DNA of 64,000 bases from Megalobrama amblycephala (Eukaryota > Chordata > Actinopteri > Cypriniformes > Xenocyprididae), in the NCBI RefSeq assembly GCF_018812025.1, contig NC_063045.1:12938884-13002883 (forward strand). Direction: 5' to 3'. The notes beneath the pieces were generated by a model. It worked only from the letters and a program-made list of their open reading frames with translations, made no database searches and was not told the DNA's origin. The position numbers and the translations under genes are program-made. Of the stretch, positions 32,901-50,900 are shown piece after piece; positions within the stretch are counted from its first letter, which is position 1; every line of letters begins with the position of its first letter.

Positions 32901-35900
32901 GAGAAAAGCCGTTTGCTTGTGCCGTGTGTGACATGAGATTTATTCAGCGTTACCACTTGGAGCGACACAGCCTCACTCACACTGGTACGACTTCTTCCGC
33001 TATGCATCTGTGTTCTGACTTTAAACAGTGCCTGTTACCTTCAGCATTGGTGATTTGACAAATAATGTACTTTTAGAAGGCAAATTATTTGTATGCGAAC
33101 TGCACTACAAAAAATTCCATTATTGAGCAAATTCATATCACATAAGTGTTCAAGTGTGACAAAGCTGATGTAAAATAACTACTCTGCAAGTGATGTGCAA
33201 TTTCATGTTACTGCCACAGATGGTGAAAGTATGGAAAAATAAAAAAGGTAATTGCGATTTTTTTTTTTGTCAATTCAGACGTTTTTCTCAGAATTGCGAT
33301 ATTATAACTCGCAGTTGCAAGTTTGTATCTCGTAATTCTGACAGTTTTAATCAGAATTGTGAGAGAAACTCATTATTGCAAGAAAAAAGTCAGAATTGAA
33401 AGAAATAAACTAGCAAATTAAAAATTAATTGTCTTTTTATCTCACAATTCTGACTATTGCTCAGTATTGTGAGAGAAACTCGAAATTGCGAGTTATAAAG
33501 TCAGTTAAAAAAAAGTCAGAATCAGGAGATAAGTCGCAATTACCTTTTTATTTTTTATTCTGTGGCAGAAACAAACTTCTATATGAAAGAGAGGCCAAAA
33601 TTCTGTAGTGCAGTTTTTAGCCAAGTCTGTTCCCTGTACATTAGATGTGACGCCTTTTATTTATTTATTTATTTTTTAACTGTCATTTATTGAATATTTA
33701 ATGACTTTTGTACCAGTGGAGATCAGACACACTTTCATCAAGCAAAGTTTTATGAACACTGTGTGACACTTGACTAGTTGTTTGAGCATTATTCTGAAGT
33801 AGACAAAAATCATGTACAATATCTTAAAGCTGCTAAATCCTTGCGGGTGTATTAAGCTTAACATTTGTTGTTATGAGCAGGGTTTTGATTCTGTGTAGAC
33901 GATCATTGAATTTGCCACTCTGTGCATTTAGGGGTGAAGCCATATGCTTGTTCCATGTGTGACATGCGGTTTTTCCAACGTTACCACTTGGAGAGGCACA
34001 GCCTCACTCACACTGGTATGTGTCATTACATTGGACATTATTTCAAAAACAATATTTGCTTTTTACACTTATTTTTAAAGTATCTTTGTTTACATGAGCT
34101 ATAATTAAATGCGCACAAATCCCATCATGTTGTTTTTTTTATCTACATTGTAAAAATCCTCTAAGGTGCTCTCATTAGCCTTTTCAGTCATATAAACCCA
34201 GCATGGATACTCATGTATTTAAACAGAGTTACAGATCATAGCCGTCTACACAGAACAAAATCTTTTTGTTTTTATTAAGATTAAGGTTTTGCTTTCTCAC
34301 CAAGTACAATGGCACAAAACACAAGCGTAAAATACTTTCAAATAGTTGTTGCACTAAAGCTATTCACAATGCATTCTAAATTTCTTTGTTTATTTTCTAT
34401 TTTTTGAGCCATTAGAATGTCGACCCGCCTCTAAATGAGAAGTAGATTTAAAGTTATGGCAGGAATACTTTTCGACAGGCTTTTCAGAATATTTTTAGAT
34501 GCATAGACATCCATTAAAACAGAATCCAGTAGTCTGCTATAGTCTGCCTAATTTCTAGTTTGCAAAATTGCTGTACTTTTATCATATGATGTTATGCAGA
34601 ATTACAATTTGAAGACATCTTATTGACATTTTGTTCTACATTTAGGCATCAAACCATATGCTTGCACCATGTGTGACATGAGATTTTTCCAAAGATACCA
34701 CCTTCAGCGACACAGCCTCATTCATACGGGTACAAGTCATCTCTTACCCATGCGCTGCTGCCGCTGTCTGCATTGCTTTTGTTTGTTTGACTGGCATTTT
34801 TGAACCATGCAGTGTTACGCTCACTCTGCAGTTCTACAGCTTTCTGCTTTTGCTGAGAATTCCTGCACATCGCCATGCACATGAGCCTCATTGCCTCTGT
34901 TGCCTTTTTAGCATGCTAGATATCGTCTGCATGACGTCTGCTTTATCTGTGAGGCAATCGCAAATCCCTGTTCATGCTTCATATTTAATCTTCACAAAAA
35001 CTACTTTTCTGTTTCACCTTCATATTTGAAAGGGGACCCGCTGATCTTTGTTCTATAACGGCAATTTCCATGAATAAATGTATGGGATTATTGTTGGGTT
35101 TTGGGCAGATAATTTTAAATACCGAAGGTACTCTCAAGGTATAGCTCTCTTCATATTATTGAAGAATGGCATCTTTCGTATTTTCCCCCCCAAACTCCAC
35201 CATTTGAGATGCATTTTTACTAGGGCTGCCCCCTAATAGACAACCAAATGTTAGTCGATGAGAAAAGGCTTGGTTGACCAAATTTGAATTGGTCCGGTCG
35301 GTCGCAAAAAAAGTCTGTAACGGACCCATTGTTAACACAGCTGGTCCATGTGGTAATTATATCGGACAGAAAATCCAAAGCATGGGATCTTTTAGAGAGG
35401 GTAAAGGATAACTATAAAAAGATGACATGCAAACTGCAGGCAAACGTTCGCCTGTCATTCATTCATCGAGCGCAAACTTGGCTTGTTATTTGAAACATGT
35501 AAATAGTAGTGTAATGCTAGCTTCACATGGCCACTCGCTCTAAACTTTAACGTTAACCTAGATAATTTGGGCTATCATTAGGCGTATATCCAAGTTTTTG
35601 AGTGAAAGCGCTTAATGCATTTTTCTCTCTCTAGAGGCGCATCCACTGTACTGCGGAGATGAGTCCGCGTCGTCAACTTCATCTTTGCAGCGATACTGAA
35701 AACGCTAGTTATTTCCATAAACATGTGACTAGTCAACTAATGGCTTAAATGACTACCAGTCGACTAGGAAAATCTTTGGTGGGGGCAGCCCTAATTTTTA
35801 CCATGCAGTCAAAATCTCATTGTCAAACCCTGGCAATCATTGTTCATGTAGATATTTCATATTAAGTCTTAAGATCATTTACAAATTTCATAGTTTTCAT

Positions 35901-47900: not shown

Positions 47901-50900
47901 ATTTATACTCTAACTACAACATTACACACTAACTAAAGTTTGAAACATGGGATCACGAAGAATGGGACCTTTAAAGTTTTTACATTTGTATCGTTAGATA
48001 TTTAAGTAAGTTGAAACCTGATTCTTGGATTTAAAAGTGTAATCTGGCATATTCTTTAAAAACAAAAAATCCAGTCGTCTCTGCGTGCAATGAATCTTGG
48101 GATAGGCGACGCTGCGAAGGATCCACTCGTGCTAACTTTCGTGGACCGGGAAACAAAGGACTCATTTGTAGGCCGCATTCGAAAGAACCTTCGAAATGGG
48201 ACACCCTCCGTCGTGCCGCTGTGACGCATTCAGCTTTTGAAGGATGCAGCCTCTGAATTAGGACACAATTAATGTCAGCATGCAGAACAATTTAGGAAAA
48301 AAAATCAATAGCATGTTCTACATTTTTAAACGCCATTAAAAATTGTTTGCTACTTTGAATGTTTTGTAAAGGCATTCACTAAAAATTGACTCTACATTTA
48401 GGGGTGAAGCCATATGCTTGTTCGATGTGCGACATGCGGTTTTTCCAACGTTACCACTTGGAAAGACACAGCCTGACTCACACTGGTATGTGTCCTTTCT
48501 TTGTACCCCAATTTACTAAGTATTCCTGGATTGGAGTTTGTCTATATTGTGTGGATTGGGGAGTTTAGGGGTGAAAGACAGTGAGATAACAATGACTTAT
48601 TCAAATTAACATTAGTAATGAGTTTGAATAGGAACTCTCTGTTTTGAAAAATTAATTAGCCATATCCTGTGTCATATAAGATTTGCATCAACATCAGGGC
48701 ATTTAAAAACATTTTTACCTGCATTTGGAGCGAGTTTTGCGAGTCATTTCAGACTTGCTTGATAGCATCAGGTTTATCTATTGTAGTTGCTCCTGCCTCA
48801 TGTTTCTCTGTGGGGTTGGTGGTTTTTGTCTTTATCAAGTTTATTTGCATTCACTTAGCAAAATCAGTTAGATAAAATGACGCTAGCTGCTTCTTTTTAA
48901 CCATTTTTAAGCTCAATCATATTTATTCTCCAAGCAGAAAGACTATAACCAAGTCTCAAAGCAGGTTTCTGATCTTTAAAACCAAAACCCCAGTGTGCCA
49001 CTTTACAGTCAATCAGTTTTTCATTCCATATTAAACATACTCTACAAACTCGAGTTTGTATGAAGTCATCTACTTTATTTCTAAACATGAATATACTCTG
49101 TATTTGCAGGTTTCATTGAAATCCATATGACATAAGTCTCGATCCTTACATGACAATCTGTGTTTCAGAATCTTTATTGTGTGTTGTTGTGGCATGCTGT
49201 GAGAATGAAGGTGTGGGGTGCTTCAAGTAAAGACTGTTTTTCTCTGATAGGTGAGAAGCCGTTTGCATGTGACATGTGTGACATGCGGTTCATTCAGAGG
49301 TACCATCTGGAGCGACACAAGCGTGTTCACAGTGGTGAAAAGCCTTACCAGTGTGAGCGCTGCCAGCAGGTAAGAACATACTTTATAACATGGGTTTTTT
49401 TAAGGCAAGACAGCACCTATTGTTGATACTGTAGTTAGAAGAATACTGTATGCTGGGAAGATTGAGTTGTTGTTAAAGGGTTAGCTCACCATAAAATGAA
49501 AATTCTGTCATTAATTACTCACCCTCATGTCGTTCCAAACCCGTAAGACTTTCATTCATTTTCAGAACACAAATTAAGATATTTTGGATGACAGAATGCT
49601 GTCAGATCTGTAGAGCTATAATGTTAACGCTATAGAGGAACGATGTGGTTGGAATCACTTTCAGAACTTTTTTTTTTCCAGCTGTTGAACGATAAAACAC
49701 TGACAGCCAGTCAGAATTTCAATTTAAGGGCTCATGCATTTAAAATGATTGACGACATTGCCAAGGTCCAAAAAAAGCCACCACTATTTGACAAGTCAAA
49801 CCCCATTTTCAAGGATGCTTTAAAGAAAATGGATATATGGAAAACAATCGGTCATACCCTCAGAAAAAAATGGTGAGAAGTATTAACGATGAGATCATTA
49901 TGCAAGACTAGCAAACAGTGTAACATAAAATTACCTCAGTGTCGACAACATTGTCTTGCTTCCTTTGAAGTTGCAGAGAAAGTGACTAAGTGTTGTTTTT
50001 ATTCAACTATATTGACTTTAGGGCTGCAACTAACGATTATTTTGATAATCGATTGGTTGGCCGATTATTATTATTATTTTTTTTTTTCGATTAATTGGAT
50101 AAAACCCCTAATTTTATTCATTTTTATTTTGACAAAAAAAAAAAACACACACTATTGCACATCCTGTCCAATGTACTTCAAACAAATGTGCCAACTGAAT
50201 GCTATGAAAACATAGTCATTTATTAGACTACCTATCATAATAAAGAGAGAACACAAATATTTTAGGAATCTGTCAAAAACTTGCTTGAAACTAAAAATGG
50301 TATTGCCATTTATTAGGAATATATCAAACTGAAACAACTAAATAGTTTCTAAATAATATTCCTGACAGGGCCAGCCATTACGGTAACGCATTAGCTTGAA
50401 TCTTAAAATAAATAATTCTCATGTTTTGATCTCGCAGCAGCTCACTCTGTTTCCTCCACTATTTTTAGATGCATTTTGGTCCATAGAAATGCGTTATTCA
50501 GTGCTGTAATTTGACACGACGTGCACGGTGGGCGGAGCCAACTAATCGATAATGAGAATCGTTGTCCATTAATTTCATTATCGATTATTATCGATTTTAT
50601 CGAATAGTTGTTGCAGCCCTAATTGACTTCCTCAGCTAAATTCACTGTTAGATTAGATTGATTATACTAGCTATTCACTCGAAACAGAGCATGCTGAGGA
50701 CATCTGCTGTTTAAAGCCATGTAAATGCAACAAGAACAGCAAAAACATGTTGTACACACTTTGAAACCACAGCACGTGAGCTTACAATAAACAGACCATT
50801 ATTGTTCATTGGTGTGGACATAAATATTAGTTACTTTATAGTTACGTTCTTGGTGTGAACAGGCCTTTACGCAGCATGTTTGAGCTTCCAGAAGAGGTTT

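What the first reader, a model, noticed from the sequence alone, without database searches (positions are those of the whole stretch)
32901..49369. Twelve intact one-finger exons in a row in a znf740-type gene
The middle C2H2 finger exon of a gene that in mammals has a single such exon (as I recall ZNF740) is present twelve times, each flanked by its own splice sites. Eleven are exactly 84 nt; the last also opens the terminal finger. All keep Cys2-His2 ligands and lack stops. If all are spliced in, the protein has 14 fingers. Most multi-finger proteins encode all fingers in one exon; a row of one-finger exons spread over 16 kb is unusual.
Basis: partly seen in the sequence, partly recalled or inferred. 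Interest (0 to 1): 0.92.

Follow-up and report, generated by a model that had tools for sequence, protein, structure and literature searches.

The report
Splice-in zinc-finger ladder in fish znf740a
In this fish, a gene for a DNA-binding protein carries twelve intact single-finger exons in a row, eleven of which are sized so that any of them can be skipped without breaking the reading frame, and it is likely spliced into proteins with 3 to 14 fingers, most of them near-identical, a predicted way to set how long a stretch of DNA the protein grips.

Summary
In detail: twelve one-finger exons at 32901-49369, eleven of them exactly 84 nt and phase 1-1, all with splice sites, Cys2-His2 ligands and no stops. 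The gene is znf740a: its N-terminus falls in the teleost clade of array-bearing proteins, apart from znf740b. The array is old and constrained (pS 0.58, pN 0.056 among E2-E11; introns unlike beyond about 20 nt), and recognizable exons (E3, E4, E8) recur in Denticeps.

Public protein models from other clupeocephalan fishes carry 1-8 array fingers (33 of 120 listed hits), in genomic order where tested; models of one species differ (Danio, Sinocyclocheilus, Scophthalmus). So the best reading is a row of cassette exons giving variable finger number. One-of-many choice and a fixed 14-finger protein are disfavoured. No RNA was read.

Array fingers share nearly the same helix contacts (Q-Y-H-R), so splicing probably sets the length of a repeated-triplet site rather than its sequence. 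Variable finger number is known (Ikaros); an eleven-cassette, same-specificity array, inferred to date from the clupeocephalan ancestor, was not described in anything my searches listed. A 14-nt palindrome in three array introns is an untested lead on block skipping.

The parts
27742..27786 (+). start exon, [15 protein letters not shown]
   Evidence: same N-terminus in relatives; donor TGG|GTTAGT read
27963..28154 (+). coding exon 2 ([17 protein letters not shown]...)
   Evidence: matches relatives
29742..29888 (+). coding exon 3, lysine-rich linker
   Evidence: joined there with the boundary one base later, which gives the same cDNA
32668..32791 (+). finger 1 exon
32901..32984 (+). E1, 84-nt finger exon (TGEKP linker); its EKPFAC-A/G-V/I-C type recurs in otomorph, salmonid and percomorph models
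33932..34015 (+). E2, 84-nt finger exon (TGVKP linker)
34646..34729 (+). E3, 84-nt finger exon; [15 protein letters not shown] signature also in Denticeps
37803..37886 (+). E4, 84-nt finger exon; DRRFF signature also in Denticeps
38358..38441 (+). E5, 84-nt finger exon
38653..38736 (+). E6, 84-nt finger exon; signatures CPMRFF and RFFQRCH absent from the 243 retrieved proteins
42313..42396 (+). E7, 84-nt finger exon; signature QRHTITH absent from the 243 retrieved proteins
43190..43273 (+). E8, 84-nt finger exon; FFHRYH signature also in Denticeps and Danio
44698..44781 (+). E9, 84-nt finger exon (strongest U1 pairing of E1-E11)
45491..45574 (+). E10, 84-nt finger exon
48402..48485 (+). E11, 84-nt finger exon
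49251..49369 (+). E12, 119-nt exon: middle finger of the three-finger form plus first half of the terminal finger
54942..55133 (+). terminal coding exon: second half of finger 14 (C2HC) and tail
38256..38269 (.). palindrome CAAACTCGAGTTTG, copy 1 (intron E4-E5); role untested
44830..44843 (.). palindrome copy 2 (intron E9-E10); role untested
49045..49058 (.). palindrome copy 3 (intron E11-E12); role untested

Best explanation
This is the teleost znf740a gene with eleven frame-neutral one-finger exons (E1-E11) between finger 1 and the last two fingers, and it likely works as a splicing-controlled finger ladder in which each transcript takes an ordered subset and so makes a protein of 3 to 14 fingers. 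Shown: the exons, their equal length and phase, their constraint and their age. Inferred from annotated protein models of relatives: that exons are used as independent cassettes rather than one at a time or all together. Predicted: because nearly every array finger carries the same helix contact residues (Q at -1, Y at 2, H at 3, R at 6), adding fingers would lengthen the same repeated-triplet, G-rich/C-rich site by about 3 bp each, changing reach and affinity rather than sequence preference. How inclusion is regulated is unknown; short pyrimidine runs before E2-E11 may make inclusion adjustable.
For: Exons, phase and ligands. All 11 cassettes are 84 nt, so all 2048 subsets stay in frame (arithmetic). 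Constraint: pS 0.577 against pN 0.056 over the 45 pairs of E2-E11, and pS>pN in 66 of 66 pairs of the 12; each exon alone has fewer replacement changes from consensus than expected (P 1.7e-5 to 0.026). Age: intron flanks at background identity; E3, E4 and E8 signatures in Denticeps, which is Otomorpha within Clupeocephala. Variable number: 33 of 120 listed region-search hits have array fingers, 1-8 each, 26 of 33 two or more. Within one species, with identical N-terminal stretches (60 of 60 residues compared), models differ in array fingers: Danio P0004 has four that P0121 lacks, Sinocyclocheilus anshuiensis P0003 two that P0002 lacks, Scophthalmus P0043 one that P0056 lacks. Order: in 17 of 17 otomorph models tested the fingers fit the window's order at no extra mismatch (uninformative for the shortest). 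Source names run to isoform X30 (Danio) and X49 (Salvelinus). Same code: over 29 distinct array fingers, position -1 is Q in 27, 2 is Y in 29, 3 is H in 27, 6 is R in 29. Splice sites: longest pyrimidine run is 4 before each of E2-E11, against 7-9 before coding exon 2, finger 1, E1, E12 and the terminal exon. Precedent: IKZF1 clones clustered primarily by number of zinc fingers (PMC12896614, passages).
Against: No RNA was read, and the models are database proteins, many probably built by software from short reads (recalled), which can chain cassettes wrongly. They are cluster representatives from other species; a fish whose model lacks an exon may simply not have it in its genome, so only the same-species pairs show variation directly, and two further same-species pairs (Astyanax P0136/P0129, Poecilia P0029/P0130) have differing N-terminal models and are not clean. 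E5, E9 and E10 (and E2 and E11) encode identical peptides, so exon assignment is ambiguous. Weak splice sites are not special to the array: U1 pairing of finger 1 (-4.2) and coding exon 2 (-4.6 kcal/mol) is as weak, E9 is strong (-10.6); coding exon 3 has a pyrimidine run of 3; and the plain pyrimidine count in -20..-5 overlaps (8-12 of 16 for E2-E11, 11-14 for the others). E6 and E7 signatures occur in no retrieved protein and E6 has Y to C at helix position 2. Many-finger proteins often use only some fingers on DNA (general knowledge), so 3 bp per finger may fail. The C-rich site is recalled for mammalian ZNF740.
Confidence: 0.72

Rival explanations
1. Constitutive array: all twelve exons are normally spliced in and the gene makes one long protein of 14 fingers; shorter models are annotation artefacts or minor products.
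For: All exons intact and constrained; software models from short reads can produce false skipping. Two models hold eight array fingers in a row (P0006, P0007). Longer models could be hidden inside the 90% clusters.
Against: No retrieved array-bearing model has all; 33 listed models carry 1-8 array fingers and three same-species pairs differ. E2-E11 have short pyrimidine runs.
Confidence: 0.12
2. Mutually exclusive cluster as in Dscam: exactly one array exon is chosen per transcript, giving a four-finger protein.
For: A row of equal-length homologous exons is the usual look of such clusters (general knowledge). Self-complementary intron copies could act in RNA pairing. 7 of 33 models have a single array finger.
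Against: 26 of 33 models have two or more array fingers. All cassettes are 84 nt, so frame does not enforce exclusion, and the introns between array exons are 211 nt or longer, which I judge too long for steric exclusion. Near-identical helices would make choice among them pointless.
Confidence: 0.04
3. Mostly neutral proliferation: exon duplicates persist because skipping or including them is harmless, splicing is noisy, and variable finger number has no function.
For: Near-identical helices imply redundancy; E6 and E7 signatures are in no retrieved relative; different finger duplications occurred repeatedly in this gene.
Against: Replacement changes are depleted in each of 12 exons and recognizable exons persist from Denticeps to cyprinids; unused exons would have decayed.
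Confidence: 0.1
4. Assembly artefact: copies of one exon were stacked by misassembly.
For: None found.
Against: Copies sit in different intron sequence, differ at synonymous sites, and relatives have matching fingers in the same order.
Confidence: 0.02

Closest known systems
Ikaros (IKZF1) isoforms
   Same: Alternatively spliced exons that encode zinc fingers change the number of DNA-binding fingers; effects track finger number (PMC12896614, passages).
   Different: Core DNA-binding domain of two to four fingers there; here eleven 84-nt one-finger exons with nearly one helix.
ZNF740 / znf740b (three fingers)
   Same: Same N-terminus, finger 1, E12-type finger and terminal C2HC finger.
   Different: No array: 68 of the 87 listed hits without array fingers have exactly three fingers.
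Tandem one-domain cassette arrays such as tenascin-C FNIII exons (recalled, not searched)
   Same: Repeated same-phase exons included in variable number.
   Different: Structural repeats in an extracellular protein, not DNA-reading fingers.
Dscam-type mutually exclusive clusters (recalled)
   Same: Row of equal, homologous exons.
   Different: Models of relatives include several array exons together (26 of 33).
PRDM9 and KRAB zinc-finger proteins
   Same: Long arrays of similar C2H2 fingers.
   Different: Fingers usually lie in one exon (PMC12539977, passage on KRAB proteins; PRDM9 recalled) and contact residues diversify (recalled); here one finger per exon and contacts nearly invariant.
Other znf740 expansions: osteoglossomorph and eel-group modules, lungfish, frog
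   Same: Same gene family, repeated finger gain.
   Different: They repeat other units (E12-type fingers, two-finger modules, finger 1-2 pairs), not the TGVKP 84-nt cassette.

Membership tests
ZNF740 (znf740a orthologue) | N-terminal region and finger 1 group with znf740a, apart from znf740b | tested here: met
   window inside the cyprinid branch (0.986) of the array clade (0.985); znf740b clade separate (0.998); 34 of 35 chosen relatives used, one dropped because finger 1 was not found. With seven more proteins: 0.903 and 0.997.
ZNF740 (znf740a orthologue) | Terminal C2HC finger split over the last two exons | tested here: met
   [17 protein letters not shown] across 49369/54942.
C2H2 zinc finger | Pfam zf-C2H2 models above cut-off | tested here: met
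   PF13465 313 bits (cut-off 40), 13 stretches; PF00096 149 bits (25.2).
Variable-finger-number splicing (Ikaros-like) | Isoforms differ in number of fingers through cassette exons | tested here: inconclusive
   Met in protein models of relatives, including three same-species pairs; no transcript read, none from this species.
Mutually exclusive exon cluster | One exon of the cluster per transcript | tested here: not met
   26 of 33 models of relatives have two or more array fingers; models, not reads.
PRDM9/KRAB-type finger array | Finger array within one exon; DNA-contact residues diversified | tested here: not met
   One finger per exon; contacts nearly invariant.
Tract-length ruler (proposed) | Bound length grows with finger number | not testable with these tools
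   Needs binding assays.

The most novel reading that the evidence does not exclude
znf740a is a splicing-set DNA ruler: one gene dials the length of a repeated-triplet G/C-tract site from about 9 to 42 bp by counting how many same-reading finger exons it splices in, with self-complementary intron palindromes helping to loop whole exon blocks out.
Probability: 0.25. Interest if true: 0.85.

Novelty: new variant of a known kind. Interest (0 to 1): 0.63.

Why it matters
Finger number and finger sequence are normally confounded when asking what long zinc-finger arrays are for. Here one gene appears to vary number while keeping the reading helix nearly constant, in the clupeocephalan fishes sampled, with a three-finger sister gene (znf740b) as a built-in control. 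Zebrafish has the gene (Danio models X19 and X30), so it is testable. It also shows a locus that gained fingers more than once in different ways.

Tried and rejected
Rejected: assembly artefact (intron flanks differ); mutually exclusive cluster; steric exclusion (introns between array exons 211 nt or longer). No Rfam family at gathering threshold in the window. Neighbouring-gene check: tails of two fused models (NR1D2-like from Rhinichthys, hnRNP-A-like from Labeo) have no convincing match in the window (best E 0.58 and 0.37), so synteny was not established. Solved structures: the best of 249 matches are generic multi-finger proteins (ZNF568, CTCF, Aart); no ZNF740 among the 60 shown. U1 pairing energies and plain pyrimidine counts do not separate array from non-array exons. 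One search's row N3 used a boundary one base off and is not used. In one search the first intron length is one base short because I took the start exon's end as 27787.

Papers (10 of 10 searches used): 'znf740' gave 113 papers, of which I saw the listing of 30; 'znf740b' one; 'znf740a' none; 'ZNF740'+'teleost' one; four exon-duplication or finger-count searches gave 1, 4, 0 and 1 papers; Ikaros with finger number 2; 'ZNF740'+'C-rich' none. None of the titles and abstract openings shown describes the array. Only open-licence PMC papers are held. Passages, not whole papers, were read: PMC5414179, PMC9748118, PMC11350041, PMC12539977, PMC12896614.
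Full report
WHAT IS THERE. The gene lies on the + strand from the start codon at 27742 to a stop ending at 55133. E1-E11 are each 84 nt with the frame split after the first base of a glycine codon on both sides; E12 is 119 nt. Other coding exons lie at 27742, 27963, 29742 and 32668, and a terminal exon at 54942 completes a C2HC finger. Pfam finds 13 stretches of the double-finger model in the joined protein. A translated search found no further finger exon at E<0.01.

AGE AND CONSTRAINT. Among E2-E11 the mean synonymous difference is 0.577 and the mean replacement difference 0.056 (45 pairs); pS exceeds pN in all 66 pairs of the 12 exons. 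E5, E9 and E10 encode the same peptide from different codons. Each of the 12 exons taken alone shows fewer replacement changes than expected (P 1.7e-5 to 0.026); copies are related, so these are not independent tests. Identity between intron flanks is 0.26-0.34 beyond 20 nt upstream and 16 nt downstream. The duplications are therefore old and the copies are real sequence.

WHICH GENE, AND WHERE THE ARRAY OCCURS. Protein searches returned many fish ZNF740 models. In a tree of N-terminus plus finger 1 (34 relatives plus the window; one of 35 chosen dropped), the array-bearing proteins form one clade (0.985) with the window among cyprinids; znf740b is separate (0.998). With seven more proteins the supports are 0.903 and 0.997. 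The array clade includes Denticeps, a characin, a catfish, Salvelinus and percomorphs; Denticeps, Nothobranchius and Salvelinus were checked as Clupeocephala. Of the 120 listed hits of the N-terminal search (156 passed the threshold), 33 have array-type fingers and 87 do not; of the 87, 68 have exactly three fingers, 13 fewer and six more. Those six come from Arapaima, Paramormyrops, Aldrovandia, Gymnothorax and Anguilla (two), and repeat E12-type fingers or two-finger modules instead (Aldrovandia checked as Elopomorpha, Paramormyrops as Osteoglossomorpha; the others not looked up). One gar, bowfin, sturgeon and reedfish model each has three; one lungfish and one frog model have five in other arrangements. 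So the locus gained fingers several times, and the 84-nt array is most simply placed before the split of Otomorpha and Euteleosteomorpha; that placement is inference.

HOW IT IS USED. The 33 array-bearing models carry 1 to 8 array fingers, 26 of them two or more. In 17 of 17 otomorph models tested, the fingers fit the window's order with no extra mismatch. For models of one to three array fingers this says little; for the eight-finger carp and Rhinichthys models random orders almost never do as well (0 and 1 of 2000). Best-fit paths include finger 1 to E4 (Labeo X6), E1 to E8 and E1 to E12 (Danio X19, X30), E4 to E12 (Triplophysa rosa X7) and E8 to E12 (Denticeps), and a carp model leaves E12 out. 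A missing exon may be absent from that genome, so the cleanest evidence is three same-species pairs with identical N-terminal stretches and different array fingers: Danio, Sinocyclocheilus anshuiensis and Scophthalmus. The two Danio models bear different protein names, so they may come from different annotation releases. Brachionichthys P0127 joins finger 1 to E12 and falls in the znf740a clade. This is what independent cassettes would give; it does not fit one-of-many choice or a fixed 14-finger protein. These are database models, not reads, they stand for 90% clusters, and several end in what looks like intron sequence.

WHY LENGTH RATHER THAN SEQUENCE. Over 29 distinct array fingers from the 33 models, helix positions -1, 2, 3 and 6 are Q (27), Y (29), H (27) and R (29); the most variable helix site is 5 (E 15, Q 9, A 5). 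In the window's twelve only E8 (H at -1) and E6 (C at 2) depart. Adding fingers should therefore repeat the same triplet. Human ZNF740 preferred the C allele of a TERT-locus site together with ZNF148, VEZF1 and ZNF281 (PMC5414179, passages); a C-rich motif for ZNF740 is otherwise recalled. Array fingers mostly have TGVKP instead of the TGEKP linker (77 V and 25 E of 104 occurrences); the effect is unknown.

HOW INCLUSION MIGHT BE TUNED. Each of E2-E11 has a longest upstream pyrimidine run of 4, against 7-9 for coding exon 2, finger 1, E1, E12 and the terminal exon; coding exon 3 has 3, and the plain pyrimidine count overlaps between the groups. Pairing with U1 is weak in most array exons but equally weak in finger 1 and coding exon 2. 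In the array region, apart from low-complexity words and words touching the exons, the only 14-mers seen three times belong to a perfect palindrome, CAAACTCGAGTTTG, absent elsewhere in the window in exact form. Copies lie in the E4-E5, E9-E10 and E11-E12 introns and any two could pair as RNA (-23.8 to -26.0 kcal/mol), looping out E5-E9, E10-E11 or E5-E11. Its frequency in the genome could not be checked, so it may be a scattered genomic motif.

VERDICT. Observation confirmed; interpretation sharpened to a variable-number finger ladder, shared by many teleosts. Known in kind (Ikaros), new in scale and design as far as the searches listed under Tried and rejected show.

Noticed in passing
38256-38269, 44830-44843, 49045-49058: Exact 14-nt palindrome CAAACTCGAGTTTG three times, all in array introns, none elsewhere in the window in exact form; the surrounding sequence does not match between copies.
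   Followed up: partly
54941-55312: The terminal exon is open in a second frame (123 aa), the one reached if E12 is skipped; the carp model P0006 ends in the matching frame (by eye).
   Followed up: partly
about 55100-55133: Several relatives end PGRLAV, the window reads [17 protein letters not shown]: consistent with a one-base difference near the stop, real or a sequence error.
   Followed up: no
43868-43945 and 46629-46706: Two long TA microsatellites, 78-nt arms 99% complementary, flank E9 and E10 and could pair in RNA.
   Followed up: no
36542-37023: Inverted repeats in the E3-E4 intron (arms of 81 and 87 nt, 84 and 82% complementary), possibly a mobile-element remnant.
   Followed up: no
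536-901 (-): Reverse transcriptase fragment (Pfam RVT_2, E 7.9e-15).
   Followed up: partly
58785-59366 (-): Tc-type transposase-like frame (Pfam HTH_Tnp_Tc3_2, E 0.0005, below that model's cut-off).
   Followed up: partly
P0151, P0150 (relatives): One lungfish (F1-F2-F1-F2-F3) and one frog (F1-F2-F3-F2-F3) ZNF740 model have five fingers by other duplications, so this gene seems to gain fingers repeatedly.
   Followed up: partly
P0007, P0033 (relatives): Models fused to an NR1D2-like receptor and an hnRNP-A-like protein suggest read-through into neighbours or annotation chaining.
   Followed up: partly
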